Source: Metallyticus violacea (lineage: Eukaryota > Arthropoda > Insecta > Mantodea > Metallyticidae). Taken from it: a stretch of DNA of 64,000 nt. The DNA lies in NCBI GenBank assembly GCA_030762175.1, contig JAUJEO010000019.1, positions 1,308,001 to 1,372,000 of the forward strand, in the 5' to 3' direction. The translations under genes were made by a program, and so were the position numbers. Shown here piece by piece: positions 33,401-64,000 of the stretch (positions within the stretch are counted from its first letter, which is position 1; every line of letters begins with the position of its first letter). A model generated the notes under the pieces. The model saw only the letters and a list, made by a program, of their open reading frames with translations, searched no databases and was not told where the DNA came from.

Positions 33401-36400
33401 ATAGTTCTTGTTTCATCCAGCATGAATCTCATTTAAGGTGTGGCATTCAACCTCCTAGCAAATCGAATAAAGTACAGGACAAGCCTTGATGTCTTTTTTC
33501 CTGGAACTGAGATTACAGTTAATTGTTTATTTATGTTGCATTGATATGATATGCATGAGGAATGAGGTGTGTAAGAGTTTGCACAGGAAAACATTATCAG
33601 ATCTCTGAAATTTCTTTCATTACTCTTTAGTGTTAATACAGATCAAATGTTGAAGTGAGAATAATTTATGTATGTATTTTTGCCATTTATTAATTGAGGA
33701 ACCCTCAGATATTTTTAATATGAGAAACAGGAATAGTCAATTTCTATTTAATTTTTTAAGTACAAAAGCAACAGTGACAATGCTGGAAAATTTCTAGGTA
33801 CCTCTATGGAGTGTGTTACCATTTAGATGAAAGTGATAACACATTTGGTACACTAGACATTTGGCAAGGTAATTAAGTCTTGTCCCGCACTTTAATTTCC
33901 ATATGCTGCAATTTAATTCCATTTATAGGTTATAGTTCCAATCTTATTTCTAAATTCAGTTCTGCGAAAGGAAGTAAAGATGCATTATACACTAACAAGT
34001 TATAAAAAAATGGTGCTTTTAATGTTATTAACAAAATATTCCTTTATATGCACCCTAAAATTCTTGCCTAAAATGTAGAGTAGCAAATTACAAAAAAAAT
34101 ATCACCATATGATTTGACCACAGGAGAGAGAGAGAGAGGGGGGAAGGGAGAGAGTATTATATGAAAATCCAGTCACTAGTGATAACAGAGGAATGTATTA
34201 ACTAAAGTTGTTAATTGGATCATTGCAGAGTGAAAGGAAGTAAAGAAGCATTATAAACTAACAGGTTATAGAAAATTTATGCTTTTAATGTTATTAGTAA
34301 AATATTTCTTTATATGCACCCTAAAATTCATGCCTAAAATGTAGCAAATGCTATCAATTACAAAGAAATATCACCATATGATTTGACCACAAGGAAGGGA
34401 AAAAAAAAAAAAAAGACAGAAAGAAGGAAAAAAGTACTGAATGAAATCCAGTCACTAGTGATAACAGAGGAATGTATTAACTAAAATTGTTAATAGGAAC
34501 ATTGCACAGTGAAGGTTGTATTAAGATTGTTGTATGATTGAGTCGAACTAACATGCTTTTGCTCCACTTATGTGCTCCACTCATTTAAAAGGTGTAAAAT
34601 ACTTGTTTTAAACAAGTAAGTGGAGCAAAAGAATGTTAGTTCGACTCAATCGTACAATGCTCTTAATACAAGAATGTATATTTTTCAGTTACATATATGA
34701 AGAGTAGAGGAGAAAATGGAGCTCATCAGCATTTTACTAACTTTTCAGGAGAATCATTCTAAACACTTGGTTTTGTATAGAGACTTTTTTGAACTTATTT
34801 TTAACATTATCTTATAAATATAATCAGTCAAGTAGTAAAGTTGTAGGTATTTTTATTACTGCTTATTATAACTGTAATACAGATATAAGACAATACACAT
34901 CATTACTACATACTTTGGTGGGAAAGAAGGAGCTCATTAAATTGAATTATTTGTCTTATTCGTTGAGCTTGGAGTTGAAGAGATTATGTATTAACTTTAT
35001 TTTAAATATCACTATTATTATTCAACTTATTGTATTTTGTTAAAAGTAGTATGCAGATCTTGAACTTTATGAAATAATACATTGATCCCTTAGATAATGT
35101 ATGGTCCTAACATTTAAATCATAGTACTTTGAAACATGTAAGAAAGAACACTCTTATTTTTACTTCTTTGGAAGGTTAAAGAAGTAATCTTTGGAAGGTT
35201 AAAGAAGTAATCCTTTCTCTTTTCGAAAACTGTTTGCAGGCAAAACAGGCTACAGATATAAATATTCTTAACATCATGTAATTTCAATAGATTAAACTGT
35301 TTCAAAGTCTTGTTTCTTGTCTCTTCTGACACTAACTTAAATCATTACCATTTGCATTTACAGTTATCTTCCATTTCTTGTGATTGTAATTTCAATCTTT
35401 TAATATCTTGCAGGCATCTTGCAATATAACTTACTTTATCCCCCCCCCCCTCCCGTTCCATTACATCTTTCACTCCCAAGTGCTCCATTTTGTGTGGAAA
35501 AACAAAACAATGAAACACCATGTAAATAAAATCTCTCAGATTCACACTTCTTATTGGCTAAAAATACAACATTAATGCAATGTGTATACTTATGTGATAC
35601 TTGGGACCAAGAGGAAGAACAATGCAATCAGCCCCTTCTTTCCCTGAATAGCCTATTTTCTTTAGCCACTTTCTCTGAAATGAGCCTCTTGTTTCACAGT
35701 GGAAAATAGATCATCTTACACTAAAAAGCAACAGATTGTGTTATGATTGCCATTTTTCAAAACAAATATAATGAACCCCTTTTTTCCTTTATATAAAACC
35801 TATTATCAGTTAAAATCTCTTTCCCCTGGGAAGGGTTAAAATTCTAAAATGGTTAAAATGGCTAAAATCCTCAACATTCTTAACCGTTTCACCCATTAAA
35901 CTGTTAAAATTCAGGACATGTTTCGTGACCCATCAGTCACATAGTCAGCTGATGAACCCCTTTTTTCCCTGTACCCTGCATATGATGATAAAGAAATCTG
36001 CATGTGTATTTAATAAAATAATTTAAAAGAATAATGAGAACAGGAACTGCTGTGCTTAAAAGTGCATGTATATGTACTATCTATTATATTCTGAACTTTC
36101 TGTTTTACCTAAGTATGGTTTCTTTAAAGTAACTGAATGTGAGCTACATGAATGAACATTTTGCAATTTTATGAATAGGATCTTAATGTTTCTGTTAAAA
36201 TATGTCACACATTTTCCTATGCATGGAAATGCCTCAGAAAATAACACTCATGATAGTATTCAAGTATGAAAGATTTAAATTGAAAATACTGTTGTGAAAT
36301 ATTTCATAACATGTGTTAGTTTCCTTATAACTGAGAATTACATGTGTACAATGGCAACCTTATCTCTCAAGTACTGAAGTAATAACTCATGGTAAGAATG

Positions 36401-37809: not shown

Positions 37810-40800
37810 TTTTTTTAAAGGTCCAGAAATGGTAGCGTATTATCTTCCATTTCACATATAAATACTAAGCTTGGTTCTTATGAGTTTAGTAGTTTTATGT
37901 CATCATTAATATTTCCATTTACAGTTGTGAAAATATCAACATAACATGTATCATATTTTGATTATGTATGGAAAGGATTTTGTAATGAATTGCAATATCC
38001 TGGGGGAAGAAAATATAAACTTAAAGTTCATCAGATATCTACCAGAGCCAAAAAGTATAGCTCCCAAAGACTAGACAATCCTTCTGGTAGTTGATCATTA
38101 GCTGATTATGTGAGCAAAGTTCTGCGAAACTTGTTCTATTAAAAGTTATATAAGTTGCATGAGTGTTTACTTAGACTCATTACAAGGTATTAATAGCTAT
38201 TCTATTCTTATCTCTGCTTTTATCTACTCCAGGGATAGCCTAACATTGATCGTGACCTAGCTGATAATAAAATTGACTTTGGTTGATTGCACACATTTGT
38301 TGCATCCCATTATCAACATAGGGCATTGGGAAGCATATTTCTCGTTATTTTGGTTTTATACTGTTTAACATCTTTGATCATTAGTATCCCATTCAATTTA
38401 AGGCATGAAATGGCTGATACATTTTGTTCAGAAGCCTCTTCATTCAGGCTTGAGGTACTTCTATGTGTCTTAAATATACAACATGGGACCAACGGCTTTA
38501 CTTCTCTTCTGAAGGAAGCTATACTAATGATTTTTACACACCAAAATCCATTGACTCTGGCCGGGTTCAAGGCAACCTTGGGTCTACAGGGCAAGTATGG
38601 GTACACAGTCCTTGTGTCTAGTGGTATGCTAGACCACAAGGATTGACCGAAACATATTTCCTTGAACTGGTTAAAACACATTAGGTATAAATGGATATCA
38701 TTGTATGATTCAGTTGAACTACACACTCTTAAAGCTTCACTTACTTTTCATAAATGTATGGAACCGGTTTCGAGAACATTTTGTTCCCATCTTCAGCCAT
38801 GCTAAGGTTCAACTGTCGGATTATTCGTTGAGCTGTGGGAATGTATATTCTGCTCTGGTGGCGGTGTGATAAACTTGTAGTTTATGTTTTCATCCCTGAC
38901 AATGTCGAAGTTCATTATGCTGTTTTTGTATTTGTAGATGTAGATTTTCTCCCAGGTTGCTAATTCCGTAGGTCCTTGTACTGATTTTAATAATTTTGTT
39001 TTATTTATTATGTCGTGATTTTGTGTCCAAAAATGATATGCTACTGCTGATTTCTCTATTTGCTTGTACTTTATGTTCCTGAAATGTTCCTTTAACCGTG
39101 TGCATAAGGAACATTTCAGGAACATAAAGTACAAGCAAATAGAGAAATCAGCAGTAGCATATCATTTTTGGACACAAAATCACGACATAATAAATAAAAC
39201 AAAATTATTAAAATCAGTACAAGGACCTACGGAATTAGCAACCTGGGAGAAAATCTACATCTACAAATACAAAAACAGCATAATGAACTTCGACATTGTC
39301 GGGGATGAAAACATAAACTACAAGTTTATCACACCGCCACCAGAGCAGAATATACATTCCCACAGCTCAACGAATAATCCGACAGTTGAACCTTAGCATG
39401 GCTGAAGATGGGAACAAAATATTCTCGAAACCGGTTCCATACATTTATGAAAAATAAGTGAAGATTTAAGAGTGTGTAGTTCAACTGAATCATACAATGA
39501 TATCCATTAATATGATTGGCTTCACTGTGTTAAGTTCCAATTTTACACATTAGGTATATTTTGCAACAGGCACTGTAATATGGAATATTGCTGAGTATTG
39601 CACCACATCTCAATCAAAAATGAACTCTCAGCCAGCATGTGAAAAAAAAATCTCTTAATCTGGTGTAAGGGCTATTGAATGAACTGTGAATGGAGCCATT
39701 GTTCTTTAAACAGCCAACTATGAATTGCTTTCATTCATAAACAAATTTTGAGGAATAAGGGGGTTGGATGAATGGAATAAATTGAATTTGGATGAATGGG
39801 AATGAAATAAGTGTGGGTGGGCAGATTCTTCCATGGTCTGTGGTATTGGTACCTTGAAAATCCAGAGAAGGCTGCCACTGATGTTTTGCTCAATAAATTG
39901 TGAGCTGTTCTTGTGTGTTAAGATGGTTCATTCAAAATTTAACTTATATTTGACACTCAAGAAAGATGTATAGCATAAATCCAAGCTGTTCTTGGTGACT
40001 TAGAAATTGGATTCAGTGATTTCTAAAATTAAGGAGATAATTATATAAGAAAATTAAATAAATCAACTGGAATGTGCATATTTATGAAAGCCAGATCATC
40101 AGAAATATTTTTGGGATCATGTTTCTTAGAAAAAATACTCCAGTTAAGTAAATGCTGCCATGTTTGCCCTACATTGCATTTACATATTTATATAAATTAA
40201 CATATTGCTATTGAAAACTAATGAAATGCTGCTTTAATTTAACTGATGAGCAAATTGAAGGCTGTTTGCAATTGGCATTGTCTACATTTGCACTAGCTAT
40301 TCAATCTTCGTGGATGACATGATGGCTGAAACTACATAGTAATTTAACCAAAAATCTTATGTTTACATTTTTATAAAGTTTATGTATGAATATCCGTAAA
40401 ATTGATAAATTTATTGAATTTGTATATTTATCAGAAAAATATGTGTATGATCCTGCAGGTTTGGCTATGTGTGAAAAATTTTGGAAGCACTTTTTGAATT
40501 TGTGATATAGATTGTAAGTGGTCAAGATAAATAATATAGATCTCATTTTTAATAAAATTGGCCATCTGTGAATTAGTAAAATGTAAGCTGCTGAATTAGG
40601 CATATAATTAGGCATATGCAAAAAATTTTGGAGGAACATTTTGAATTTGTGATGGTAGATTGCAAGCAGTCAAAATGAAAGATATAGATCCCATTTTTAA
40701 TAAAATTGGCCATCTGTGAATCAATATAATGTAACCTATGATTCAGAATAATTAGGTATATAAACGGGTTATATGCACCTTCTGCTGCTTAAGTAGTGTT

Positions 40801-43800: not shown

Positions 43801-46800
43801 CAATTCTCTTCTGGGTTTCTTTTGAATGCTGCGACCTGCAGCCTGCTGCTCCCACAGCACTGGTATATGAATCCATTTGTATAACAACAGCAGGCCAGTC
43901 CACTTTTTCTCCCCTAGATAATGCAATGATGAAAAAAATATGAATATGTTATTACATTACCTTTCATTATAAAAGAGATTTGAAATGATGCTCCTCTATG
44001 TTTATACAAGCCTGGCACCTGTTGAACACATACTGAACACTAAAAAAATTTCTGCAGCCAAAATATTGGAAAATATGTGCCAGATATTGTCTTCTGTTCA
44101 TCCAGCTTATAGGAATTTATTGCATAAACTTTATCTTTAAACATTCCCAACAAATAATCACATGGATGAGAGTGAGCAGGCCAATCAATTATTTTGTCAG
44201 CAAAAATGCTGTATGGCAATTACATTATCTGGCATAAAGTAACCATGGGCATGTTCTGCAGGTGTCATTTTTCTGAAGAAAGGAGTCTGTAAATTATTCA
44301 AAGTAGTTTGTGGTTAAGTGAAAGAAAATGGGCCCAATCATTCTTGTTGCACTGATAGCACTCCACACTGCCATCTTTACATCATGCAGTGGTTTCTGAT
44401 GTAATTGATATAGATTTTCAGGATTCCATGATTAAATAACTTATCATTAGTTATTGGGTGTTATGGAACTAAAAAACATGTGTTTTAAGCACCTAAAAAT
44501 GCACTAAAATTCCTAAAAATATGCAGGAAAAATGTGTTCTCTGAAAGGCATATTTTGTTTACATTATTTTGCTAAAAACTCTTTTATTGTTGCATTTTTA
44601 TACTGCATTCCAAGGAATGAATTTTCATGCAATGCATGGTACATGCCATAGTAAAATTTATTTGGTTTTCCGGAAGAGGAAGGTTTGATTTAACACTGAT
44701 TGTGTAATTGAAAACATTTTATGATATAGTCGAACTACACCCTCTTATGCTTCACTTACTTGCATTATTGTAGACCGGTTTCGAGAACAGGTTGTTCTCA
44801 TCATCAGTTCAAATCTCCGACTGTTGGATAATTCGTTGTGTTGTGGGTATTCTGCTCTGGCAGAGGTGTGATGAACTTAAAGTTTATATTTTCATTGCTG
44901 GAAATGTCAAAATTCATTAAACTGTCTCTGTATTTATAAATGTATATTTTCTCCCATGTTGCTAATTCCCTAGGTCCTTGCACTGATAATAATTTTGCTT
45001 TATTCACTATATCGTGGTTTTCTGTCCAAAAATGAAATGCCACTGCTGATTTCTCAATTTGCTTGTATTTTATGTTCCTAAAATGTTCTTTTAACCGTGT
45101 GCCTATGGTTCTCTTTGTTTTCCCTATGTAGAGTTTTTTCACATTCTTCACAACTTATTTTGTAAATGCCTGATTTTTTTCTCCTGTGGAATACTGTCAT
45201 TAACATTGTCTGTGAGAAGATGTTTAACATTAAACTTGTTAATCGGTGCCAACCTGATATTAAAATTTTTAAGAATTTTCTGAAATTTTTTTGTAGCCCA
45301 TGTGTGAATTTTTTAAAAAAAAATTTTTATCTTTCTTTGCTGAAAGTGTTGTGATTTCTTTTATAAGCTTTTGCCTCTTGAATTTCTATACCTTTTTGTA
45401 TACTAGTTCTTTCTTAAAACCATTTTTAACTGCTGTTTTTTCTATTTGTTTGTATTCTTTAAAGAATTCATCCTTGCTAATTCGTAGGTTAACTAGCCTT
45501 TTTGTTAAACTGTTGATAACTGCATATTTGTGAGAAGTGGGGTTAAAACTGTCAGCTTTTATGTGATTGTCTGCATGTGTATCTTTTCTGTAAATTCCAA
45601 ATTCTAGACTTCCTTGATGTTTCATTATTTTTATGTCCAAGAATGGTAACATGTTATTAGTTTCTGTTTCGTATGTGAACGATATATTTTTTCTTGTAAA
45701 TTCAAAAGTTTTATGGCATCCTCAATGAGCTTATTGTTAACAATGGCAAATATATCATTGACATATCTGTACCATGTTTTAAATATGTATGGGGAAGCTG
45801 TATTGATGTGTGTTTCAAACCTACTTATGAAAAGATTAGCTGAAAATGGAGATAAGGGGCTGCCCATAGTGAGTCCTGTTTCTTGTTTATAAAATTTGTC
45901 CTTGAAAGAAAAATATGGTTGGTTTATGCAAATTTCAGTGAGTTTCATGTATTCTTTTATTTGAGCATCATTATTCCACTTGTTTTTAGCCAATCAAGTA
46001 AATAAATCAGGAGTTTTTCTTTAGGTATGCTTGGGAACAATGATACTACATCGAAAGATATTAATGTGTCTGAAGGTTGCAATTTTATGTCTTTGATTTT
46101 TTCTATTAACTTAAATGAACTGCTTATGCCTCTGCTATAAAATTTTGGTAGTATCTTGAATCTGTGAACTAGCCATTTTGCCAAATAGTATGTAGGAGTA
46201 TTTATATTGTTAATAATTGGTCGCATATCATTTCCAGGTTTGTTAACTTTTGGTAAACCATATATTTTTGCTAATGTAGGGTTGTTTTGTTTAATTTTGT
46301 ATTTTATTTGTTTTGGGATAACTGTACAAGTTTTTAGAGCTTCAGTGACTGAAGTAATGCAATGTTTTAGTGGGTTTGATTCGACCTGAACAAATTCATT
46401 TTTACTTAACAATTCTTGCATTCTAGTATTATAATCTTGTTTATCTAATATAACTATTCTGTTACCTTTTTCAGATTTTGTATAAACCACATCTTTAGCT
46501 TTTAAGGATTTTATTATGTTCCTATGTGTCTTGTTTAATGATGTTTTCGTTTTATTTATTTCTTTTAAGATTTCATTCTATTTCTTTTTCTTTACTGTTT
46601 AGATCTTCAATAGCCACTTCTAGATCTACTAAGTAATCTTCTATTTTATTGGAATAATGCACACACGTTTTTAGGCCCTTATTTAAAAAAGCTAATTCTT
46701 CTTTTTTGAAGCTTTCATTTGATAGATTTTCCACAAAGCTCTGTTTAGGTTCTGGTTGTATGTACATACAACCAGAAACAGCAGCAAACATACTGATTGT

Positions 46801-51486: not shown

Positions 51487-51498
51487 ATAGATACTGTT
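51487..51498 (+). repeat. Direct repeat flanking the PLE pair, left copy
   Basis: ATAGATACTGTT occurs here and at 55541-55552. It could be the target duplication of the PLE insertion, with about 41 bp of extra sequence on the right. Confidence 0.5.
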
Positions 51499-53350
51499 AA
51501 CATAACAAATTATTATTGAGGAAATCACTCAAATTTCACTAATTTAGTTCCACTTACTTGGACATGTTTCAAAGGCGATTGCCTTCATCGTCAGCATGAT
51601 CCCAATGTCCGCTTCCCCGCGTGGTATTCAGATGTTGCTCCGTAGATTTTATGAACTTTGTGATAAGGTTGCTATTGTTTGGAAGATCAAAATTAACCAA
51701 ATTTTCTTTGTTTTTATTTATGAATATATTTTCCCACACTGTCAATTCTATTGGTTTTTGAAGAGCTTTTAAGAGTTTTGGTACCTTTTGGAATTCGTGG
51801 TTTTTTTTGCCAGAAATGGTCTGCCACTGCTGATTTTTCCATGTGTTTATATTTTACATGCCTCATGTGTTCCTTAAACCGTATGGAGATATTTCTTTTT
51901 GTTTTGCCTATATATTTCATATTGCAATCTTTGCAAGCAATTTCATAAATGCCTGATTGTTTTTCTGGAGGAATTTTGTCTTTTGTGTTCGTTTTTAGGA
52001 GGTTTTTTAAACTACATTTGTTTACTGGAGCCAAAATGATGTTTGCCTGTTTAAAAATTTTTTGGAATTTTTGGTGTGCCCATGGGTGGAATGTGAATTT
52101 TTTATATATCTGATCCCCTTTGTAGCCTTTTAGTGTGGTGATATCTTTTATTCGTTTTTTCTTTTTGAATTTTTCTATTTTCTTGTTCACCAGATCTGTT
52201 GTGTAACCATTTTTTTGTGCTATCTCTATGATTTTTTGGTACTCCAATTTGTATTCTGTCTTGCTTATTGGAAGGTTTGTTAATCTGAATGTGAGGCTAT
52301 TGATTATGGCATGTTTATGTTGTATTGGGTTGAGGCTGTTGTTTTTTATGTAATTATCTGTGTTGCTATCTTTTCTGAATATGCCAAATTCCAGTATATT
52401 GCCATTTTTTATAATTTTTATGTCCAAGAAAGGAAGAATCGTGTTGTTCTCCAATTCCATTGTAAATTTAACACTGCTGTCTTGCAGGTTGAGCAGTTTT
52501 ATTGCATCCTCTTTCCAATTTTCATTTACTATTGCAAAGACATCATCAACATAACGGTACCAACATTTGTATATATATGGAAAAGCCTCAATTATTTTTA
52601 TTTCTAAAAAACTCATGTAGATATCTGCTAAGAATGGTGATAATGGGTTTCCCATTGCTAGACCCTTATTTTGTGTGTAACTGTTGCCTCCGAATGTGAA
52701 GTAGGTTTGGTTGATGCAAATTTTGGTGAGGTTCACATATTGTTCTATTGCTTCTCTAGGTAGGTTTATTGAGGTTAGCCATTTCTGTATGACCACTATC
52801 AGATTTTCTTTGGGGATGCTAGGAAACATAGAGACCACATCATACGAAACTAGTAGATCCCTATTTTCCAATTTCACATGTCTAATTTTATCTATTAGTT
52901 CTGATGAGTTCTTTATGCTTTGGCTTTTGTATTTCGGCAAGGCATTAAATTTTTTAAAAGGCAATTGGCTAAATTGTATGTGGGTGAATTTATTGTATCT
53001 ACAATAGGTCTCATTTTGTTTCCCGGTTTATGTATTTTTGGTAGGCCATAGATTCTAGGTGTTGTAGGGTTGTCTGGTATGATCTTCTTTTTTTCTTCTT
53101 CACTCAGAATTGTTACTTCTATTAATTGTTTTTTTACTGCACTGATATATTTTTGTGTAGGATCTGTTTGCATTTTTTCATAATCTTGGCTGGTTAGTAA
53201 ATTGTACATACTGTTTTCATAATCTGTCTGATTCATTATCACAATTTTGTTTCCTTTGTCAGCCCTACTGTAAATGACGCCCTTTTCTTTTAAAGACCTG
53301 AGTATCCTGTGATATGTCACTTTTTGGTTATTTTCTTTTTTTATTATTTG
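51499..53350 (-). pseudogene. PLE family B copy B1 (5'-truncated), minus strand
   Basis: This copy is almost identical to B2 and lies head to head with it. The 51714-52964 minus-strand frame covers RT (SYDVVSMFPSIPKEN, GLAMGNPLSPFLADIYMSFL and YRYVDDVFAI) and GIY-YIG (SGIYEIACKDCNMKYIGKT). The upstream part continues in another frame at 52913-53320. A 1-base deletion near 52950 separates the two frames. The 5' end is cut at a point equivalent to about 53650 in B2. It has the same 3' frameshift as B2. Confidence 0.92.
51553..51600 (-). ncRNA. Hammerhead-ribozyme-like motif of PLE B1
   Basis: Its sequence is identical to the motif at 55398-55445, described there. Confidence 0.75.
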
Positions 53351-55499
53351 CCCGAGTAAAACAAAAATGGCAGGCTATAAATAAAAAACTGGACAAACTT
53401 CAAGAGAAACAGCGAAATATTAAAACTAGGAAAGAAATTAAAAGCAACAAAATAGAAAATGTCATAAACAAGTCAAACCAAAACTTTTCGGAAAAAGAAT
53501 TGCAACTATTAAACGTAGGATTAAATTCTTGTATAGATTACTCCAGAAATACAGAAGAATATGTAGCAGATATAGAAATAGCGATTTTTAACAAACCTGA
53601 AGAAGAAAAAAGCATCATAAGATCACAATGTGCAAAAGTACTAAAGCAAATAATAAAAAAAGAAAATAACCAAAAAGTGACATATCACAGGATACTCAGG
53701 TCTTTAAAAGAAAAGGGCGTCATTTACAGTAGGGCTGACAAAGGAAACAAAATTGTGATAATGAATCAGACAGATTATGAAAACAGTATGTACAATTTAC
53801 TAACCAGCCAAGATTATGAAAAAATGCAAACAGATCCTACACAAAAATATATCAGTGCAGTAAAAAAACAATTAATAGAAGTAACAATTCTGAGTGAAGA
53901 AGAAAAAAAGAAGATCATACCAGACAACCCTACAACACCTAGAATCTATGGCCTACCAAAAATACATAAACCGGGAAACAAAATGAGACCTATTGTAGAT
54001 ACAATAAATTCACCCACATACAATTTAGCCAATTGCCTTTTAAAAAAATTTAATGCCTTGCCGAAATACAAAAGCCAAAGCATAAAGAACTCATCAGAAC
54101 TAATAGATAAAATTAGACATGTGAAATTGGAAAATAGGGATCTACTAGTTTCGTATGATGTGGTCTCTATGTTTCCTAGCATCCCCAAAGAAAATCTGAT
54201 AGTGGTCATACAGAAATGGCTAACCTCAATAAACCTACCTAGAGAAGCAATAGAACAATATGTGAACCTCACCAAAATTTGCATCAACCAAACCTACTTC
54301 ACATTCGGAGGCAACAGTTACACACAAAATAAGGGTCTAGCAATGGGAAACCCATTATCACCATTCTTAGCAGATATCTACATGAGTTTTTTAGAAATAA
54401 AAATAATTGAGGCTTTTCCATATATATACAAATGTTGGTACCGTTATGTTGATGATGTCTTTGCAATAGTAAATGAAAATTGGAAAGAGGATGCAATAAA
54501 ACTGCTCAACCTGCAAGACAGCAGTGTTAAATTTACAATGGAATTGGAGAACAACACGATTCTTCCTTTCTTGGACATAAAAATTATAAAAAATGGCAAT
54601 ATACTGGAATTTGGCATATTCAGAAAAGATAGCAACACAGATAATTACATAAAAAACAACAGCCTCAACCCAATACAACATAAACATGCCATAATCAATA
54701 GCCTCACATTCAGATTAACAAACCTTCCAATAAGCAAGACAGAATACAAATTGGAGTACCAAAAAATCATAGAGATAGCACAAAAAAATGGTTACACAAC
54801 AGATCTGGTGAACAAGAAAATAGAAAAATTCAAAAAGAAAAAACGAATAAAAGATATCACCACACTAAAAGGCTACAAAGGGGATCAGATATATAAAAAA
54901 TTCACATTCCACCCATGGGCACACCAAAAATTCCAAAAAAATTTTAAACAGGCAAACATCATTTTGGCTCCAGTAAACAAATGTAGTTTAAAAAACCTCC
55001 TAAAAACGAACACAAAAGACAAAATTCCTCCAGAAAAACAATCAGGCATTTATGAAATTGCTTGCAAAGATTGCAATATGAAATATATAGGCAAAACAAA
55101 AAGAAATATCTCCATACGGTTTAAGGAACACATGAGGCATGTAAAATATAAACACATGGAAAAATCAGCAGTGGCAGACCATTTCTGGCAAAAAAAACCA
55201 CGAATTCCAAAAGGTACCAAAACTCTTAAAAGCTCTTCAAAAACCAATAGAATTGACAGTGTGGGAAAATATATTCATAAATAAAAACAAAGAAAATTTG
55301 GTTAATTTTGATCTTCCAAACAATAGCAACCTTATCACAAAGTTCATAAAATCTACGGAGCAACATCTGAATACCACGCGGGGAAGCGGACATTGGGATC
55401 ATGCTGACGATGAAGGCAATCGCCTTTGAAACATGTCCAAGTAAGTGGAACTAAATTAGTGAAATTTGAGTGATTTCCTCAATAATAATTTGTTATGTT
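53351..55499 (+). mobile_element. PLE family B copy B2: near-complete RT plus GIY-YIG ORF
   Basis: The open frame runs 53314-55284; its first ~13 codons are B1 sequence, and the element's own protein begins near RVKQKWQAINKKL. Using frame residue numbers: NFSEKELQLLNVGLNS (N-terminal PLE motif), YGLPKIHKPGNKMRPIV near 212, SYDVVSMFPSIP near 284, LAMGNPLSPFLADIYMS near 344, the YVDD catalytic motif at 378-381, and GIY at 578-580 with YIG at 591-593 inside CKDCNMKYIGKTKR and H-rich SAVADHF. PLEs prime reverse transcription from nicked DNA. A single extra A in an 8-A run near 55190-55197 shifts the frame, giving a premature stop at 55282; the original frame would continue to the TGA at 55427-55429. 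No 5' pseudo-LTR is present. Confidence 0.93.
55398..55445 (+). ncRNA. Hammerhead-ribozyme-like motif, PLE family B (B2)
   Basis: CTGACGA (55404-55410), T, GAAGGC, loop AATC, GCCTTT, GAA, ACATGT, C (55437). Helix II pairs GAAGGC with GCCTTT (one G-U). Helix III ACATGT is self-complementary but differs from family A's ACCGGT, which supports structural conservation. An extra U precedes helix II, as in the other families. The core overlaps the end of the original ORF (HADDEGNRL, stop). Hammerheads in PLE terminal repeats are established for other animals. Confidence 0.75.
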
Positions 55500-55540
55500 A
55501 TACTATATTTCACTGTGAAAATTCCCGCAATTCAAAAACT

Positions 55541-55552
55541 ATAGATACTGTT
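55541..55552 (+). repeat. Direct repeat flanking the PLE pair, right copy
   Basis: ATAGATACTGTT is identical to 51487-51498. Confidence 0.5.
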
Positions 55553-55641
55553 GCTGTGACTGTGAATTACATGTAGTTTCTACTCAAATTAATGCAAAAT
55601 TTCTGGTTCGCAAGTGCTTTTTTAGTGTAAAATTTGTAAAA

Positions 55642-56328
55642 ATGCCACGAAAATGTGTAAATATGGTGAATAACTTTTGTTATATTTGTGGTGAAATAAC
55701 ATTTTCCTCACAGAAACGCAATCTGACGCCTTTTGTAAAGACTGCCAAGTCTCTTGTGGACCCAAAAGACGTTCTTCTTCCACCCCTGCATATCAAGCTG
55801 GGTTTGATGAAAAACTTTGTCAAAGCTATGAACCGAGAAGGACGGGCCTTTAAGTACATCAGAGAGAAATTTTCGAAATTAAGTGGTGCAAAAGTTAAGG
55901 AAGTAATTTTTGTCGGACCACAAATAAGAGAACTTGTAAAGGATCCTGCATTTGACCAAGTTTTGGAGGGGAAAGAAAAGGAAGCTTGGGAAGCCTTCAA
56001 GGGTGTTGTTCATGGATTTTTAGGCAACAAAAGAGATGACAACTACAAGCATTTGGTGACAGTGCTCCTGCAAAAATACCGTAACCTTGGATGCAACATG
56101 TCCCTTAAGATTCATTTTCTCCACTCCCACCTAGACTTTTTCCCTCCTAGTTGTGGAGCTGTTAGTGATGAACATGGGGAGAGATTCCATCAGGACATTT
56201 CTGTTATGGAACAAAGATATCAGGGTCGTTGGAATGAAGTGATGCTTGTGGATTACTGTTGGTCTTTGTATAGGGATTCTGCGGAACTCCATCACAAGAG
56301 GCAAGCTAAAAGACAACGAAGTCAATAG
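55642..56328 (+). CDS. 228-residue protein of an uncharacterised arthropod family, internally shortened, inside the TIR element (copy 1)
   Basis: The intact ORF starts MPRKCVNMVNNFCYICGEIT, a Cys-rich N-terminus that looks like the first half of a zinc ribbon, and continues PPLHIKLGLMKNFVKAMNR, IFVGPQIREL, then GCNMSLKIHFLHSHLDFFP, VSDEHGERFHQDISVMEQRY and DYCWSLYRD. I recognise these strings from a multi-copy, uncharacterised family in insect and spider genomes whose usual members are several hundred residues long. Here the N-terminal ~35 residues join directly to the C-terminal half, so an internal deletion is inferred. Position within a TIR element suggests a transposase-related origin, but no catalytic triad is assigned. 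An identical copy lies at 60241-60927. The start ATG follows AATTTGTAAAA. Confidence 0.8.
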   Translation: MPRKCVNMVNNFCYICGEITFSSQKRNLTPFVKTAKSLVDPKDVLLPPLHIKLGLMKNFVKAMNREGRAFKYIREKFSKLSGAKVKEVIFVGPQIRELVKDPAFDQVLEGKEKEAWEAFKGVVHGFLGNKRDDNYKHLVTVLLQKYRNLGCNMSLKIHFLHSHLDFFPPSCGAVSDEHGERFHQDISVMEQRYQGRWNEVMLVDYCWSLYRDSAELHHKRQAKRQRSQ

Positions 56329-56624
56329 GCCACCACATGATTCTCTTCAGACACGACTATCTGCGAAGTATTTTTCCAGCAATTTAGAACTCTTAGCATG
56401 TAATTAGCAGTTATAAAAATCAAATGCACTTTCATTGTTGATAGCATGTATGTAATTAAAATGTATCCTTTTCTCTCAATCCGTTAATATGTAATACTTC
56501 CACCTTGTGAATATCATAGAAACTAGAGCTAATAAAAATTTTTCATTGTCATATTTGTTTTTCTCAACCCAAAATTAGTAGGAATTGCCTCATGAAGTGC
56601 TCGAAACATTCAAAAATTATTTTT

Positions 56625-56637
56625 TTGTTGCCCAGTG
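56625..56637 (-). repeat. Right terminal inverted repeat of the TIR element, followed by TAA
   Basis: TTGTTGCCCAGTG is the exact reverse complement of 51254-51266. Confidence 0.8.
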
Positions 56638-56754
56638 TAATCAGTCTGGTAAAAATATGGTAAATACTTTTTTTTTTTTTTTGCAAAAAAATGCATTTGG
56701 TGCAAGAGTCCAATTTTCTATCCTTTTAGAAAAAAATATGTTTGGAACTATGCA

Positions 56755-57770: not shown

Positions 57771-57990
57771 AAATTTACCAGACTTATCAATCCACCCTGG
57801 TATTCAAATAGAAAAAGAAGTCAAGAAGGGTTGCTTGCAAGGGTCATGCTTTGAATTTGGCTTCAAGAATGTTTTATACAATTCTTTGCATAATTTGGAT
57901 TCTAAACAGCAAACTGAAATAATTGCTTTAGCTGATGATTACATATCATGACAAAAGGTTATAAAGTGCAATATAAGCTGAAAATATGCA

Positions 57991-58478
57991 AATCATGACT
58001 TAAAGAAACTTTAAATTTGTGCAAAAAATAACAAAATTTAGACTTTTCCATGGTTTAGTGGTAGTGTTTGCAACTTAAATCCAGAGGTTCTGAGTTTGAA
58101 TCCTGGTCAGATCAAGCTGCCCCCCTTTTTTGTTTTGTTTTAATTTTTTCTTTCTGAGAAGGTGAATGGTAGATAGCTATAAGATGCCAAATACTTCGAG
58201 CTAATCTTATTTTGATTTAAAGTAAAACAATAAAAATCATGACTTAAAGAAAATTTAAATTTGTGCAAAAAATAACAAAATTTAGACTTTTCCATGGTTT
58301 AGTGGTAGTGTTTGCAACTTAAATCCAGAGGTTCTGAGTTTGAATCCTGGTCAGATCAAGCTGCCCCCCTTTATTGTTTTGTTGTAATTTTTTCTTTCTG
58401 AGAAGGTGAATGCTAGATAGCTTTAAGATGCCAAATACTTCGAGCTAATCTTATTTTGATTTAAAGTAAAACACTAAA
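57991..58478 (+). repeat. Tandem duplication (two 244-bp units), each with tRNA-like promoter boxes
   Basis: Units 57991-58234 and 58235-58478 are nearly identical. Each contains CCATGGTTTAGTGGTAGTG (A-box-like) and GAGTTTGAATCCTGGTC (B-box-like), about 40 bp apart, as in a SINE head or degraded tRNA. A following T-rich stretch (TTTTTTGTTTTG or TTTATTGTTTTG) could act as a pol III terminator. Confidence 0.85.
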
Positions 58479-58489
58479 AATCATGTTGT

Positions 58490-59795
58490 CACATTAAAAC
58501 TCTCTTTAAGTTTCACAAACACACTTATAAAAGTAATTTTGGTACATGTTTCGTGAGGTACATGCCTCACATTGTCAATGAAAACGACGACTGAGGAATC
58601 AATTTCAGCAAAGTATGTATGTTACTATGCTTGCTCTGGTGGTCTGTTAATGAACTTAAACAATATGTTGTCTGCTTCCGGTATATCAAAATTCATAAGT
58701 TTGTATTCATATTTTTTTATGTAAATTTTTTCCCATATATTAAGTTCTTTCGGATGTTGAATTGTTTTTAGTAATGTTATGTCCTTCTCTATTTCATGAT
58801 TCTCATTCCAAAAATGTGCAGCCACTGCTGATTTTTCTACTTTTTTGTGTCTAATATTTCTCCAGTGTTCCTTTAATCTTATCCCCAGATTTCTCTTTGT
58901 TTTTCCTATGTATATTTTGTCACAATCCTTGCAATTAATTCTATATATACCTGAATTTTCTTCTTTCTTCTTTTTTTGTTTAATTTTATTTAGATTTAAT
59001 AGTTTACCAACACTATATCTGTTTATTGGTGCCAGAGTAATGTTATACTTTTTGAAAATTTTTTGGAATTTATGGTTAACATAAGGGTGATATGTGAATT
59101 TTTGATAAGTATTTTCTTTAAGTGAAGACCTGAGTGTAGTGATTAGTTTAATTTCCTTTTTATTTTTAAATCTTTTTATTTTTTTATCTACCATTTGTTT
59201 GTTAAATCCATTTATTTCTGCTGTGTGTATTATATGTGCGTATTCTTCTTTACTGAGTAGTGTATTAACTAGCCTATATGTCATACTATTGAATGCTGCT
59301 TCCTTGTGGGGTCTGGGGTTGAAACCTTTTGCTTTTATGTAATTGTCAGTATGTGTGTCCTTTCTGTATATACCAAATTCTATATTTTTATTCCTTTTTA
59401 TTATCCTTAGGTCCAGAAAAGGTAAAGTATTATTAACCTCAGTTTCCATAGTGAATTTTATGGTTTTTTCTTGCAAGTTCAACAGTTTCAATGAATTTTC
59501 TATGAATCTATCTTCTACAATGGCAAACACATCATCAACATATCTGTACCATGTTTTGAATATGTATGGGAAGGCTTTCGTTATATGTGTTTCAAAGTAG
59601 CTCATGAACAGATCAGCCAAAAATGGAGACAGTGGACTACCCATCCTTAAACCTGATTTTTGTTTATAAAACTTTCCTTCAAACGTGAAGTAAGCTTGGT
59701 CTAAACATAGTTCTGTGAGTTTTACATATTCTTTTGTGTGTGTTTCTGCAATGTTGATAGATAGTAGCCATTTTTTTTTAACAAATTCAGGGTTT
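58490..59795 (-). mobile_element. PLE family C copy: C-terminal RT plus GIY-YIG, open frame
   Basis: The minus-strand frame 58625-59878 is uninterrupted. Its first ~25 codons derive from the GA-rich repeat and the palindrome arm; the PLE part begins near RENPEFVKKKWLLSINIAE. It contains [29 protein letters not shown] with an intact catalytic YVDD, FLDLRIIKRNKNIEFGIYR, and NSGIYRINCKDCDKIYIGKT with SAVAAHFWNENHE. The N-terminal half of RT is lost by 5' truncation. It is clearly different in sequence from families A and B and better preserved than A. Confidence 0.92.
58540..58582 (-). ncRNA. Degenerate hammerhead-like motif, PLE family C
   Basis: On the minus strand: TTGACAA (for CTGANGA), T, GTGAGG, loop CATGTA, CCTCAC, GAA, ACATGT, A. 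Helix II has six perfect pairs with a sequence unlike families A and B, and helix III ACATGT is self-complementary. Two core substitutions suggest it no longer cleaves. Confidence 0.6.
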
Positions 59796-59842
59796 TCTCT
59801 TTTGGAAAGAGAAGAGAAGAGAAGATAGAAGATAGAAGATAG
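59796..59842. repeat. GA-rich microsatellite between PLE C and the inverted arm
   Basis: AGAGAAG and AGATAGA units are repeated several times exactly where the palindrome arm begins. Confidence 0.85.
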
Positions 59843-60240
59843 AAAGGATAGAAAATTGGACTCTTGCACCAAATGCATTTTTTTGCAAAAAAAAAAAAAA
59901 AGTATTTACCATATTTTTACCAGACTGATTACACTGGGCAACAAAAAAATAATTTTTGAATGTTTCGAGCACTTCATGAGGCAATTCCTACTAATTTTGG
60001 GTTGAGAAAAACAAATATGACAATGAAAAATTTTTATTAGCTCTAGTTTCTATGATATTCACAAGGTGGAAGTATTACATATTAACGGATTGAGAGAAAA
60101 GGATACATTTTAATTACATACATGCTATCAACAATGAAAGTGCATTTGATTTTTATAACTGCTAATTACATGCTAAGAGTTCTAAATTGCTGGAAAAATA
60201 CTTCGCAGATAGTCGTGTCTGAAGAGAATCATGTGGTGGC

Positions 60241-60927
60241 CTATTGACTTCGTTGTCTTTTAGCTTGCCTCTTGTGATGGAGTTCCGCAGAATCCCTATA
60301 CAAAGACCAACAGTAATCCACAAGCATCACTTCATTCCAACGACCCTGATATCTTTGTTCCATAACAGAAATGTCCTGATGGAATCTCTCCCCATGTTCA
60401 TCACTAACAGCTCCACAACTAGGAGGGAAAAAGTCTAGGTGGGAGTGGAGAAAATGAATCTTAAGGGACATGTTGCATCCAAGGTTACGGTATTTTTGCA
60501 GGAGCACTGTCACCAAATGCTTGTAGTTGTCATCTCTTTTGTTGCCTAAAAATCCATGAACAACACCCTTGAAGGCTTCCCAAGCTTCCTTTTCTTTCCC
60601 CTCCAAAACTTGGTCAAATGCAGGATCCTTTACAAGTTCTCTTATTTGTGGTCCGACAAAAATTACTTCCTTAACTTTTGCACCACTTAATTTCGAAAAT
60701 TTCTCTCTGATGTACTTAAAGGCCCGTCCTTCTCGGTTCATAGCTTTGACAAAGTTTTTCATCAAACCCAGCTTGATATGCAGGGGTGGAAGAAGAACGT
60801 CTTTTGGGTCCACAAGAGACTTGGCAGTCTTTACAAAAGGCGTCAGATTGCGTTTCTGTGAGGAAAATGTTATTTCACCACAAATATAACAAAAGTTATT
60901 CACCATATTTACACATTTTCGTGGCAT
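60241..60927 (-). CDS. 228-residue uncharacterised arthropod-family protein, mirror copy
   Basis: It has the same translation as 55642-56328, on the opposite strand in the right arm of the inverted duplication. Motifs, the internal shortening and the doubts about function are as described for that copy. Confidence 0.8.
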   Translation of the reverse strand: MPRKCVNMVNNFCYICGEITFSSQKRNLTPFVKTAKSLVDPKDVLLPPLHIKLGLMKNFVKAMNREGRAFKYIREKFSKLSGAKVKEVIFVGPQIRELVKDPAFDQVLEGKEKEAWEAFKGVVHGFLGNKRDDNYKHLVTVLLQKYRNLGCNMSLKIHFLHSHLDFFPPSCGAVSDEHGERFHQDISVMEQRYQGRWNEVMLVDYCWSLYRDSAELHHKRQAKRQRSQ

Positions 60928-61069
60928 TTTTACAAATTTTACACTAAAAAAGCACTTGCGAACCAGAAATTTTGCATTAATTTGAGTAGAAACTACATGT
61001 AATTCACAGTCACAGCAACAGTATCTATAGTTTTTGAATTGCGGGAATTTTCACAGTGAAATATAGTAT

Positions 61070-63218
61070 AACATAACAAATTATTATTGAGGAAATCACT
61101 CAAATTTCACTAATTTAGTTCCACTTACTTGGACATGTTTCAAAGGCGATTGCCTTCATCGTCAGCATGATCCCAATGTCCGCTTCCCCGCGTGGTATTC
61201 AGATGTTGCTCCGTAGATTTTATGAACTTTGTGATAAGGTTGCTATTGTTTGGAAGATCAAAATTAACCAAATTTTCTTTGTTTTTATTTATGAATATAT
61301 TTTCCCACACTGTCAATTCTATTGGTTTTTGAAGAGCTTTTAAGAGTTTTGGTACCTTTTGGAATTCGTGGTTTTTTTTGCCAGAAATGGTCTGCCACTG
61401 CTGATTTTTCCATGTGTTTATATTTTACATGCCTCATGTGTTCCTTAAACCGTATGGAGATATTTCTTTTTGTTTTGCCTATATATTTCATATTGCAATC
61501 TTTGCAAGCAATTTCATAAATGCCTGATTGTTTTTCTGGAGGAATTTTGTCTTTTGTGTTCGTTTTTAGGAGGTTTTTTAAACTACATTTGTTTACTGGA
61601 GCCAAAATGATGTTTGCCTGTTTAAAATTTTTTTGGAATTTTTGGTGTGCCCATGGGTGGAATGTGAATTTTTTATATATCTGATCCCCTTTGTAGCCTT
61701 TTAGTGTGGTGATATCTTTTATTCGTTTTTTCTTTTTGAATTTTTCTATTTTCTTGTTCACCAGATCTGTTGTGTAACCATTTTTTTGTGCTATCTCTAT
61801 GATTTTTTGGTACTCCAATTTGTATTCTGTCTTGCTTATTGGAAGGTTTGTTAATCTGAATGTGAGGCTATTGATTATGGCATGTTTATGTTGTATTGGG
61901 TTGAGGCTGTTGTTTTTTATGTAATTATCTGTGTTGCTATCTTTTCTGAATATGCCAAATTCCAGTATATTGCCATTTTTTATAATTTTTATGTCCAAGA
62001 AAGGAAGAATCGTGTTGTTCTCCAATTCCATTGTAAATTTAACACTGCTGTCTTGCAGGTTGAGCAGTTTTATTGCATCCTCTTTCCAATTTTCATTTAC
62101 TATTGCAAAGACATCATCAACATAACGGTACCAACATTTGTATATATATGGAAAAGCCTCAATTATTTTTATTTCTAAAAAACTCATGTAGATATCTGCT
62201 AAGAATGGTGATAATGGGTTTCCCATTGCTAGACCCTTATTTTGTGTGTAACTGTTGCCTCCGAATGTGAAGTAGGTTTGGTTGATGCAAATTTTGGTGA
62301 GGTTCACATATTGTTCTATTGCTTCTCTAGGTAGGTTTATTGAGGTTAGCCATTTCTGTATGACCACTATCAGATTTTCTTTGGGGATGCTAGGAAACAT
62401 AGAGACCACATCATACGAAACTAGTAGATCCCTATTTTCCAATTTCACATGTCTAATTTTATCTATTAGTTCTGATGAGTTCTTTATGCTTTGGCTTTTG
62501 TATTTCGGCAAGGCATTAAATTTTTTTAAAAGGCAATTGGCTAAATTGTATGTGGGTGAATTTATTGTATCTACAATAGGTCTCATTTTGTTTCCCGGTT
62601 TATGTATTTTTGGTAGGCCATAGATTCTAGGTGTTGTAGGGTTGTCTGGTATGATCTTCTTTTTTTCTTCTTCACTCAGAATTGTTACTTCTATTAATTG
62701 TTTTTTTACTGCACTGATATATTTTTGTGTAGGATCTGTTTGCATTTTTTCATAATCTTGGCTGGTTAGTAAATTGTACATACTGTTTTCATAATCTGTC
62801 TGATTCATTATCACAATTTTGTTTCCTTTGTCAGCCCTACTGTAAATGACGCCCTTTTCTTTTAAAGACCTGAGTATCCTGTGATATGTCACTTTTTGGT
62901 TATTTTCTTTTTTTATTATTTGCTTTAGTACTTTTGCACATTGTGATCTTATGATGCTTTTTTCTTCTTCAGGTTTGTTAAAAATCGCTATTTCTATATC
63001 TGCTACATATTCTTCTGTATTTCTGGAGTAATCTATACAAGAATTTAATCCTACGTTTAATAGTTGCAATTCTTTTTCCGAAAAGTTTTGGTTTGACTTG
63101 TTTATGACATTTTCTATTTTGTTGCTTTTAATTTCTTTCCTAGTTTTAATATTTCGCTGTTTCTCTTGAAGTTTGTCCAGTTTTTTATTTATAGCCTGCC
63201 ATTTTTGTTTTACTCGGG
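61070..63218 (-). mobile_element. PLE family B copy B3 (mirror of B2)
   Basis: The minus-strand frame 61285-63255 has the same 656-residue translation as B2, including YVDD, GIY...YIG and the same late frameshift in the A8 (here T8) run. The head-to-head junction with B4 is at about 63218. Confidence 0.92.
61124..61171 (-). ncRNA. Hammerhead-ribozyme-like motif of PLE B3
   Basis: It is identical to 55398-55445 in inverted orientation. Confidence 0.75.
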
Positions 63219-64000
63219 CAAATAATAAAAAAAGAAAATAACCAAAAAGTGACATATCACAGGATACTCAGGTCTTTAAAAGAAAAGGGCGTCATTTACA
63301 GTAGGGCTGACAAAGGAAACAAAATTGTGATAATGAATCAGACAGATTATGAAAACAGTATGTACAATTTACTAACCAGCCAAGATTATGAAAAAATGCA
63401 AACAGATCCTACACAAAAATATATCAGTGCAGTAAAAAAACAATTAATAGAAGTAACAATTCTGAGTGAAGAAGAAAAAAAGAAGATCATACCAGACAAC
63501 CCTACAACACCTAGAATCTATGGCCTACCAAAAATACATAAACCGGGAAACAAAATGAGACCTATTGTAGATACAATAAATTCACCCACATACAATTTAG
63601 CCAATTGCCTTTTAAAAAAATTTAATGCCTTGCCGAAATACAAAAGCCAAAGCATAAAGAACTCATCAGAACTAATAGATAAAATTAGACATGTGAAATT
63701 GGAAAATAGGGATCTACTAGTTTCGTATGATGTGGTCTCTATGTTTCCTAGCATCCCCAAAGAAAATCTGATAGTGGTCATACAGAAATGGCTAACCTCA
63801 ATAAACCTACCTAGAGAAGCAATAGAACAATATGTGAACCTCACCAAAATTTGCATCAACCAAACCTACTTCACATTCGGAGGCAACAGTTACACACAAA
63901 ATAAGGGTCTAGCAATGGGAAACCCATTATCACCATTCTTAGCAGATATCTACATGAGTTTTTTAGAAATAAAAATAATTGAGGCTTTTCCATATATATA
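63219..64000 (+). mobile_element. PLE family B copy B4 (mirror of B1), cut by the window end
   Basis: It opens GCAAATAATAAAAAAAG and encodes the RT N-terminal part up to GLAMGNPLSPFLADIYMS, running off the end before YVDD. It is partnered head to head with B3. Confidence 0.9.

What the first reader, a model, noticed from the sequence alone, without database searches (positions are those of the whole stretch)
44770..44815. Hammerhead-like ribozymes with covarying helices at the 3' ends of three PLE families
Motifs at 38762-38802, 39398-39440, 44770-44815, 51553-51600, 55398-55445, 58540-58582 and 61124-61171 share the order CUGANGA, U, helix II, GAA and a 6-nt palindrome. Helix II is GGGAAC/GUUCUC or GAGAAC/GUUCUC in family A, GAAGGC/GCCUUU in B and GUGAGG/CCUCAC in C. 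Helix III is ACCGGU in A and ACAUGU in B and C. The sequences change but the pairing is kept. PLE hammerheads are established in other animals. Unusual here are the constant extra U between A9 and helix II and the overlap with the end of the ORF in families A and B.
Basis: partly seen in the sequence, partly recalled or inferred. Interest (0 to 1): 0.85.

Follow-up and report, generated by a model that had tools for sequence, protein, structure and literature searches.

The report
Retrotransposon-borne self-cleaving RNA motifs
The motifs are small hammerhead-type self-cleaving RNA sequences carried at the ends of Penelope-like jumping genes, a known kind that occurs by the thousand in this animal genome, with sequence evidence that they work in pairs and an almost constant extra U next to the catalytic core.

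Summary
The finding is real but belongs to a known kind. Six of the seven listed sites have the full hammerhead (HHR) core, helix II, GAA and a 6-nt palindrome. The seventh (family C, 58540) has lost C3 and G8, so the claim that all share CUGANGA is wrong. A covariance model finds two more decayed copies (35907, 38096). The hosts are Penelope-like elements (PLEs: RT plus GIY-YIG). That supports an intermolecular (dimer) stem III, as already reported for PLE hammerheads. In ACAUGUC motifs the extra U is nearly universal (6,662 of 7,087). The motif sits in the pseudo-LTR, 12-18 nt after a recurrent 5' end (GAC|A[G/T]T) and, in family A, 74 or 115 nt before two 3' ends. The overlap with the ORF end is confirmed in two forms (A3, B). 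Integrated copies show no clear excess of 5' ends at the cleavage site. No cleavage was tested; monomer folds are not unusually stable. New members of a known kind.

The parts
38754..38802 (-). HHR copy A1 (family A), core CUGAAGA-U, helix II GGGAAC/GUUCUC, ACCGGU, U17
   Evidence: 61.3 bits
39396..39444 (+). HHR copy A2 (family A), helix II GGGAAC/AUUCUC (one mismatch), ACCGGU, U17
   Evidence: 61.5 bits
44765..44813 (-). HHR copy A3 (family A, divergent), core CUGAUGA-U, GAGAAC/GUUCUC, ACCGGU, C17; its UGA (44806-44804) is the ORF stop
   Evidence: 58.3 bits
51553..51600 (-). HHR copy B1, core CUGACGA-U, GAAGGC/GCCUUU, ACAUGU, C17
   Evidence: 50.7 bits
55398..55445 (+). HHR copy B2, same sequence as B1; a reading frame passes through the core to a UGA at 55427-55429
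   Evidence: (50.7 bits)
61124..61171 (-). HHR copy B3, same sequence as B1, in a large inverted duplication
   Evidence: 50.7 bits
58535..58584 (-). Family C site: helix II GUGAGG/CCUCAC and ACAUGU kept, core broken (U3, A8; A17)
   Evidence: 48.3 bits; it was one of the model's own rows
35907..35954 (-).
   Evidence: (37.7 bits)
38096..38143 (+). Further decayed HHR-like copy: CUGAUUA (G8 to U), GAAACUUGUU
   Evidence: (27.8 bits)
38690..39545 (.). One PLE insertion of family A: two 5'-truncated copies head to head, one short and one long 3' end; target duplication CACATTAGGTATA at 38677-38689 and 39546-39558
51498..55540 (.). One PLE insertion of family B: two 5'-truncated copies head to head (meeting at about 53358/53359); target duplication ATAGATACTGT at 51487-51497 and 55541-55551
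53302..55284 (+). Family B ORF as listed, reverse transcriptase + GIY-YIG (5'-truncated, 3' frameshift)
58625..59905 (-). Family C ORF as listed, RT (part) + GIY-YIG
44804..46577 (-). Family A3 coding remains in several frames, RT and GIY-YIG pieces

Best explanation
The motifs are minimal type I hammerhead ribozymes in the pseudo-LTRs (pLTRs) of several families of Penelope/Poseidon-type retroelements. Shown by sequence: core, covarying helix II, extra U, palindromic stem III of all four kinds, and position in a unit with a recurrent 5' end 12-18 nt before the core and, in family A, two 3' ends 74 and about 115 nt after the cleavage site. Inferred: the recurrent 5' end is the transcript start, so an RNA of an element with two pLTRs carries one hammerhead near its 5' end and one near its 3' end. 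Two such motifs, in one RNA or in two, pair through the self-complementary stem III (ACNNGU) into a double hammerhead and cleave after C17 or U17, probably helped by the element's protein as shown for the Anolis PLE. Cleavage would cut tandem read-through transcripts into units. Because reverse transcription starts 74 or 115 nt downstream of the 3' motif, cleavage there removes the start site, so intact insertions must come from RNA left uncut (or re-ligated) at that motif; in this view the ribozyme limits or sorts templates rather than making them.
For: Core and helices in the window; model scores 48-61 bits for the listed copies (the model's own rows or identical to one) and 37.7 and 27.8 for two unlisted ones, against a best of 21 bits in 435,310 bases of viral contigs that were fetched with loose hammerhead patterns. 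RT and GIY-YIG domains and relatives with the same domains. Own genome: 3,251 family-A motifs, control 0; 6,662 with ACAUGUC, control 1; 13,290 with ACNNGUC, control 16. Helix II pairing 86% in 77 distinct strings against 73% shuffled (maximum 77%) and 48-62% slid. Stem III centre palindromic in 89 of 100 listed sites: AT 55, TA 19, GC 9, CG 6; these two bases would be an unpaired loop in a monomer. The best monomer folds of A1, A2, A3 and B pair core bases away, while the double hammerhead lies 1.2-2.8 kcal/mol above the best dimer fold. 5' ends: 24 of 100 copies at 17-19 nt before C3; 3' ends: the terminal ATTAA at 73-74 nt after the cut in 53 of 58 short copies, the tail end at 114-116 nt in 28 of 33 long copies. 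In the Anolis PLE, reverse transcription starts inside the RNA, most often 111-118 nt into the ORF, with the HHR cut at +26 and protein-assisted cleavage (PMC11167929, main-text section). Reviews cite PLE hammerheads that cleave as dimers and say that this needs a palindromic stem III loop (PMC7761336, PMC6466107; passages).
Against: No cleavage was measured. The A, B and C elements in the window have broken or truncated ORFs. Rfam 15 gives no hammerhead match for the window at gathering scores, nor at E up to 5 for 38500-64000, nor at E up to 10 for two short stretches. Monomers are not unusually stable: z -1.44, -0.02, -2.50, -1.25, -1.43 for A1, A2, A3, B, C. Helix I is weak: 4 pairs in A1/A2, mismatches in A3 and B, no pair next to the core in C; the best double-hammerhead fold scored for A3, B and C has no helix I at all, and the double hammerhead is not the best dimer fold for A1, A2, A3 or B. 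In vitro the Anolis HHR is dispensable for insertion and no RNA-seq reads ended at its cut site (PMC11167929). Integrated copies show no clear excess of 5' ends at the cut: 34 places against 14 at a control site 12 nt further on, about 105 and 86 after correcting for the different filters. The transcript start is inferred from DNA ends and an initiator-like motif, not from RNA.
Confidence: 0.85

Rival explanations
1. The fold is kept for binding (recognition of the template RNA or dimerisation by the PLE protein) and catalysis is incidental or lost in these families.
For: In the Anolis PLE, core mutants keep insertion activity (PMC11167929). Copies with changed position 8 but a motif otherwise kept are common: 1,105 places against 6,662 with G8. 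Monomer folds of four of five window copies hide the core.
Against: G8 is still G in 86% of these motifs, and the changes in the 100 listed places are scattered over many helix II types and, by eye, mostly to A, as neutral decay after insertion would give. A mere stem would not need the unpaired core bases.
Confidence: 0.25
2. The motif drives RNA circles: cleavage at two pLTRs followed by ligation gives circular templates, as in retrozymes, and so tandem insertions.
For: Animal retrozymes do this (PMC7229834, passages). Direct tandem joins occur: L081 (96 nt apart), L184, L191.
Against: In the 100 listed family-A places, 17 of 19 neighbours within 5 kb are head to head and only 2 are direct. 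The recurrent 5' end lies 53 nt before the cut, whereas a circle joined at the cut has no end there.
Confidence: 0.2
3. Chance similarity or a purely DNA-level inverted repeat.
For: Helix II and the palindrome are inverted repeats that could matter for the joining of DNA ends.
Against: Core plus helix II plus GAA plus palindrome never arose in 60 simulated windows; reversed-pattern controls give 16 against 13,290; the unpaired core is kept as well as the helices.
Confidence: 0.01

Closest known systems
Minimal type I hammerheads of Penelope-like elements (Cervera & De la Pena 2014; Lunse, Weinberg & Breaker 2017; known here from recall and from papers that cite them, not held)
   Same: PLE pseudo-LTR, type I, very short stem III, dimer cleavage, high copy numbers in animal genomes
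   Different: An almost constant U between A9 and helix II and the ORF-end overlap are documented here; whether those papers already show the U could not be checked
Hammerhead of Poseidon from Anolis carolinensis (PAc, PMC11167929)
   Same: RT/GIY-YIG PLE; HHR at the pLTR/ORF boundary; internal reverse-transcription start sites that explain short and tailed genomic ends; main start region 85-92 nt after the cut by its numbers (short and long ends 74 and about 115 nt here)
   Different: There the ribozyme overlaps the ORF start; here it overlaps or follows the ORF end (families A and B). The AUG made by A9, U and the first helix II G opens only a short frame in the family A and B sequences read by eye
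Penelope of the rotifer Adineta vaga (PMC3846280)
   Same: Inverted pLTRs, optional 31-bp tail at one end, target duplications of 8-10 bp, head-to-head junctions most frequent, solo pLTRs, an initiator-like sequence in the pLTR
   Different: The word hammerhead does not occur in that main text; here tail about 41 nt, repeats of 10-15 bp at the ends, and the initiator-like motif lies at the 5' boundary of the unit
Animal retrozymes (PMC7229834)
   Same: Short non-coding units with a type I hammerhead, thought to be moved by PLEs
   Different: Canonical type I hammerheads in tandem repeats with circular RNA; here minimal hammerheads in dispersed or head-to-head pLTRs

Membership tests
Hammerhead ribozyme | Core C3U4G5A6N7G8A9, G12A13A14, A15.1-U16.1, H17 | tested here: met
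   Met by A1-A3 and B1-B3; not met by C (U3, A8) nor by the copies at 35907 and 38096 (U8)
Hammerhead ribozyme | Helix II with compensatory changes | tested here: met
Hammerhead ribozyme | Stable helix I and loop I/II contact | tested here: inconclusive
   Four base pairs in A1/A2, mismatches in A3, B and C; loop contacts not tested
Hammerhead ribozyme | Match to Rfam hammerhead models | tested here: not met
   None in the window at gathering, none at E up to 5 in 38500-64000, none at E up to 10 in 44740-44840 and 55370-55470
Hammerhead ribozyme | Self-cleavage after position 17 | not testable with these tools
   Needs an RNA assay
PLE-type dimeric minimal hammerhead | Short stem III formed from a palindrome | tested here: met
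   89 of 100 listed sites, all four palindromes
Penelope-like element | RT and GIY-YIG endonuclease in one ORF | tested here: met
   PF00078 and PF01541 in B and C; PF01541 in B is 22.4 bits against a cut-off of 22.6
Penelope-like element | pLTR, optional tail, inverted arms, target duplication | tested here: met
   of 17 pairs 15 have one short and one long end and 14 a repeat of 10-15 bp at the two ends
Penelope-like element | Intact autonomous copy in the window | tested here: not met
   The A, B and C copies are 5'-truncated and/or frameshifted
Retrozyme | Circular RNA intermediate | not testable with these tools
   Needs RNA

The most novel reading that the evidence does not exclude
PLE hammerheads here form a distinct structural subclass (eight-base core strand CUGANGAU plus a self-complementary stem III, hence dimers only), and the hammerhead-bearing pLTR is itself the smallest mobile unit: an RNA of about 127 or 168 nt that starts at an initiator-like site 12-18 nt before the ribozyme, ends at one of two reverse-transcription start sites, and is inserted in trans by PLE protein at both ends of a staggered break, giving thousands of solo and head-to-head ribozyme units.
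Probability: 0.3. Interest if true: 0.5.

Novelty: new member of a known kind. Interest (0 to 1): 0.35.

Why it matters
The role of PLE hammerheads is called unknown in a review read in passages (PMC7761336). A genome with more than 13,000 exact motifs in many families gives natural tests: the palindrome result says which structure was selected, and the end-mapping gives no sign that the ribozyme's cut sets the ends of most integrated copies of family A. It also shows that Rfam's hammerhead models miss the copies in this window, and it places the motif against the ends of the element and the stop of its ORF.

Tried and rejected
Viral contigs as a source of relatives: two hammerhead patterns gave 50 loci, with 0 tblastn hits to the B and C proteins and nothing above 21 bits with the model; a protein-alignment scan found none. 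They serve as a negative control only.

A separate position-8 variant family: 1,105 motifs with another base there exist, but the 100 listed are scattered over many helix II types and, by eye, mostly G to A, so I read them as decay.

Cleaved RNA as the usual template: 34 places have foreign or rearranged DNA directly before the first base after the cut. Of the 20 of 34 fetched, 2 (L182, L187) join PLE 5' sequence there (by eye, against L148), 4 (L181, L185, L186, L200) have unrelated flanks, 9 an inverted arm, 2 (L184, L191) a direct tandem, 1 (L190) an internal rearrangement, and 2 (L195, L199) were not informative because the script picked a copy with its hammerhead. A control pattern 12 nt downstream (28 instead of 27 fixed bases, stricter filter) gave 14; corrected for the filters, 105 against 86, so no clear enrichment. 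In 116 tail-reaching copies 5 ends fall within positions 93-100 (cut at 97) against 11 in 101-150: suggestive at most, and the sample was chosen on hammerhead copies.

Pol III A and B boxes: considered for the recurrent 5' end (family A has TAGCCTGGCTGA and GTTCRACT; consensus recalled). Dropped as main reading because I see no B box in the family B tails; the shared feature is GACA[G/T]T, which resembles the arthropod initiator (recalled).

Overlap seen from protein C-termini: 8 of 120 relatives have a loose [ASTP][DE]D within the last 45 residues, and three of these (P0002, P0059, P0070) have ADD within the last eight, as CUGANGAU would encode; too few to count on.

The genome-wide count of copies starting exactly at AGTTGAAC was requested repeatedly and never answered, nor was a search with the ORF leader; the statement on 5' ends rests on the 100-copy sample, chosen by an exact hammerhead match, 98 copies from one contig and 2 from the window.

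Full report
What was checked. The seven listed sites were read, scanned with a structural descriptor and aligned. Six carry the complete hammerhead core followed by a single U, a helix II of 5-6 pairs, GAA and a 6-nt palindrome. The family C site keeps helix II and the palindrome but reads UUGACAA where CUGANGA is needed, with A at position 17. The descriptor (core, helix II, GAA) hits the window seven times, six with the palindrome; the other hit (20773, minus) has none. In 60 simulations it occurs 0.35 times per window and never with the palindrome.

Independent evidence in the window is smaller than seven. B1, B2 and B3 are identical and A1/A2 are two arms of one insertion, so four sequences are independent: A1/A2, A3, B and C. 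Counting the five distinct rows (A1, A2, A3, B, C), helix II pairs in every cell of its outer five pairs, with double-sided changes in four of them; 8 of 11 pairs of the whole structure have double-sided changes against 3.1 in shuffles and at most 3 when slid, while the two stem III pairs never vary. A covariance model from these rows finds two further decayed copies at 35907 and 38096, both with U at position 8. Rfam 15 finds no hammerhead in the window at gathering scores, none at E up to 5 in 38500-64000 and none at E up to 10 in two short stretches; its sub-threshold mir-1468 and MIR2630 matches at 39042-39156 lie on the hairpin made by the head-to-head family A insertion. As single molecules the 48-50-nt motifs are not unusually stable (z from -0.02 to -2.50).

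Host elements. The B and C ORFs carry reverse transcriptase and GIY-YIG domains. Of 7,993 candidates scored, 1,679 proteins reached E of 0.001 or less; 120 are listed, the best about 50% identical. Insertions A (38690-39545) and B (51498-55540) each consist of two 5'-truncated copies head to head, one with a short and one with a long 3' end, inside target duplications of 13 and 11 bp. This is the arrangement described for Penelope in Adineta vaga, with its optional tail (PMC3846280, passages).

The genome. The window lies in a 2.32-Gb genome that the tools hold. Exact motifs with the family A helix II and ACCGGU number 3,251 (reversed control 0). Motifs CUGANGAU...GAAACAUGUC number 6,662 (control 1), and with any central dinucleotide 13,290 (control 16). 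With a base other than U after A9 the ACAUGUC count is 425 (control 3), so U is present in 6,662 of 7,087 (94%); some of the 100 listed exceptions look like a three-base loss in the repeated TGA (for example CTGATGAAGGC against CTGATGATGAAGGC; not counted). With a base other than G at position 8 the count is 1,105 (control 8). The tool notes that its counts of repeats are lower bounds.

Covariation and the palindrome. Among the first 100 listed ACAUGUC motifs 77 strings are distinct; the outer five positions of helix II pair in 86% of cells against 73% in 1,000 shuffles (maximum 77%) and 62, 49 and 48% when slid by 1, 2 and 3. Among the 100 listed motifs the two central bases of stem III are AT 55, TA 19, GC 9, CG 6 and non-palindromic 11. 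In a monomer these bases would lie in a two-base loop with no reason to be self-complementary, so families with all four palindromes point to pairing between two ribozymes. The listed copies are related, so the binomial figure is not a true probability; the weight lies in the four palindromes occurring with different helix II sequences. Folding agrees in part: the best monomer folds of A1, A2, A3 and B pair core bases away, while the double hammerhead lies 1.2 to 2.8 kcal/mol above the best dimer fold in these four and equals it for C; but for A3, B and C the best double hammerhead scored has no helix I. Reviews report the dimer idea (PMC6466107 and PMC7761336, passages, both citing Lunse et al. 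2017, which is not held).

Place in the element. In 100 unique family A copies (98 from one contig of the genome, 2 from the window; all chosen by an exact hammerhead match) 24 have their 5' junction at 17-19 nt before C3, at AGTTGAAC, and 28 at 16-20; 29 other junctions lie elsewhere within 59 nt, three of them (at 46) being the divergent A3 subfamily rather than ends, and 43 copies continue to 60 nt or more (one of these, L059, scored 61 through an alignment slip). A less selected set of 116 copies gives 31 ends at that place (positions 41-46) against 20 in the next 46 positions. Of 20 ACAUGUC-type stretches fetched (22 motifs) three (L166, L173, L180) begin, by eye, at the matching site 12-13 nt before the core. 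In longer copies the site reads GACAGTTG in A and GACATTGG or GACAGTGG in B-type families, like an arthropod initiator (recalled); an initiator-like sequence inside the pLTR is already described for Adineta. At the 3' side 58 copies are short, 33 long and 9 neither. The terminal ATTAA lies 73-74 nt after the cut in 53 of the 58, and the end of the tail 114-116 nt after it in 28 of the 33. These positions come from motif matching, so their exactness rests on the repeats that flank them. Of 19 neighbours closer than 5 kb among the 100 listed places, 17 are head to head, 2 direct and none tail to tail. Of 17 pairs examined 15 have one short and one long end, and 14 show a shared string of 10-15 bp at the two outer ends, consistent with a target duplication.

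So the hammerhead belongs to a pLTR that runs from a recurrent 5' end to one of two 3' ends. The two 3' ends correspond in kind to the internal reverse-transcription start sites measured for the Anolis PLE, where initiation is most common 111-118 nt into the ORF and the ribozyme cut is at +26 (PMC11167929, main-text section read). One junction (L187) shows the pLTR tail followed by about 65 nt whose last part (about 27 nt, by eye) also precedes the ORF start in L148, so a pLTR can lie in front of the ORF.

Overlap with the ORF. In A3 the stop codon is the UGA of CUGA; in A1/A2 it is TAG, ending 6 nt upstream of C3. In B a frame encodes ...HWDHADDEGNRL and stops at the UGA formed by the last helix II base and G12-A13, but the listed B ORF stops earlier after a frameshift. 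In Anolis the ribozyme overlaps the ORF start instead. Coding overlap is what a ribozyme placed at the pLTR/ORF boundary would be expected to show.

How it probably works, and what is open. The likely chain is: transcription from the pLTR; a hammerhead near each end; pairing of two hammerheads through stem III; cleavage with help of the element protein; reverse transcription from the two sites downstream of the 3' motif. Only the sequence steps are shown here. Cleavage at the 3' motif would remove the start sites from the coding RNA, so it should limit full-length insertion. Junctions at the cut are not clearly more frequent than at a control site, and in Anolis the ribozyme is dispensable for insertion in vitro. 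Why the motif is kept in so many families remains unexplained.

Comparison and novelty. By the features tested, apart from the Rfam models and a firm helix I, these are PLE hammerheads of the published minimal, dimeric type. A search of the paper library for hammerhead ribozyme with Penelope-like found 22 papers. In the listings and in the passages I read I saw no statement on a U after A9, but the two key papers are not in that library. I therefore score it as new members of a known kind, with the palindrome series, the near-constant U and the end mapping as useful additions.

Noticed in passing
window 52947-56726 and 59843-63622: A 3.78-kb inverted duplication reported as 100% complementary, holding copies of the family B insertion; either a very recent rearrangement or an assembly artefact.
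   Followed up: no
window 34516-34671: A further head-to-head pair of PLE-like 3' tails (55-nt arms, 91% complementary, 46 nt apart) without a hammerhead; by eye one arm starts near the base after the expected cut. Its tail has GTTCGACTC, like a Pol III B box (recalled).
   Followed up: partly
L083 (own genome C1:21629200-21630300): About ten CAACT repeats at the centre of a head-to-head pair whose arms both begin at or next to AGTTGAAC, as if the template's 5' end had been copied repeatedly by a telomerase-related enzyme, or by later repeat expansion.
   Followed up: no
L182, L187: PLE 5' sequence (ORF start, or tail plus leader) joined exactly to the first base after the hammerhead cut, as a template jump from a cleaved RNA would give.
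   Followed up: partly
L081 (own genome C1:34256000-34259000): Two hammerheads in direct orientation 96 nt apart, a natural tandem in which a dimer could form in one RNA.
   Followed up: partly
proteins P0002, P0059, P0070: C-termini with ADD close to the end, which is what CUGANGAU encodes in one frame; hints that ORF-end overlap occurs in other PLEs.
   Followed up: partly
window 57971-58458: Two tandem copies of a 244-nt unit (95% identical) just beyond the family C 3' end.
   Followed up: no
window 55519-56328 and 60241-61050: A 269-aa ORF next to the family B insertion, duplicated with the inverted repeat; no Pfam match at E 0.01 for the first copy.
   Followed up: no
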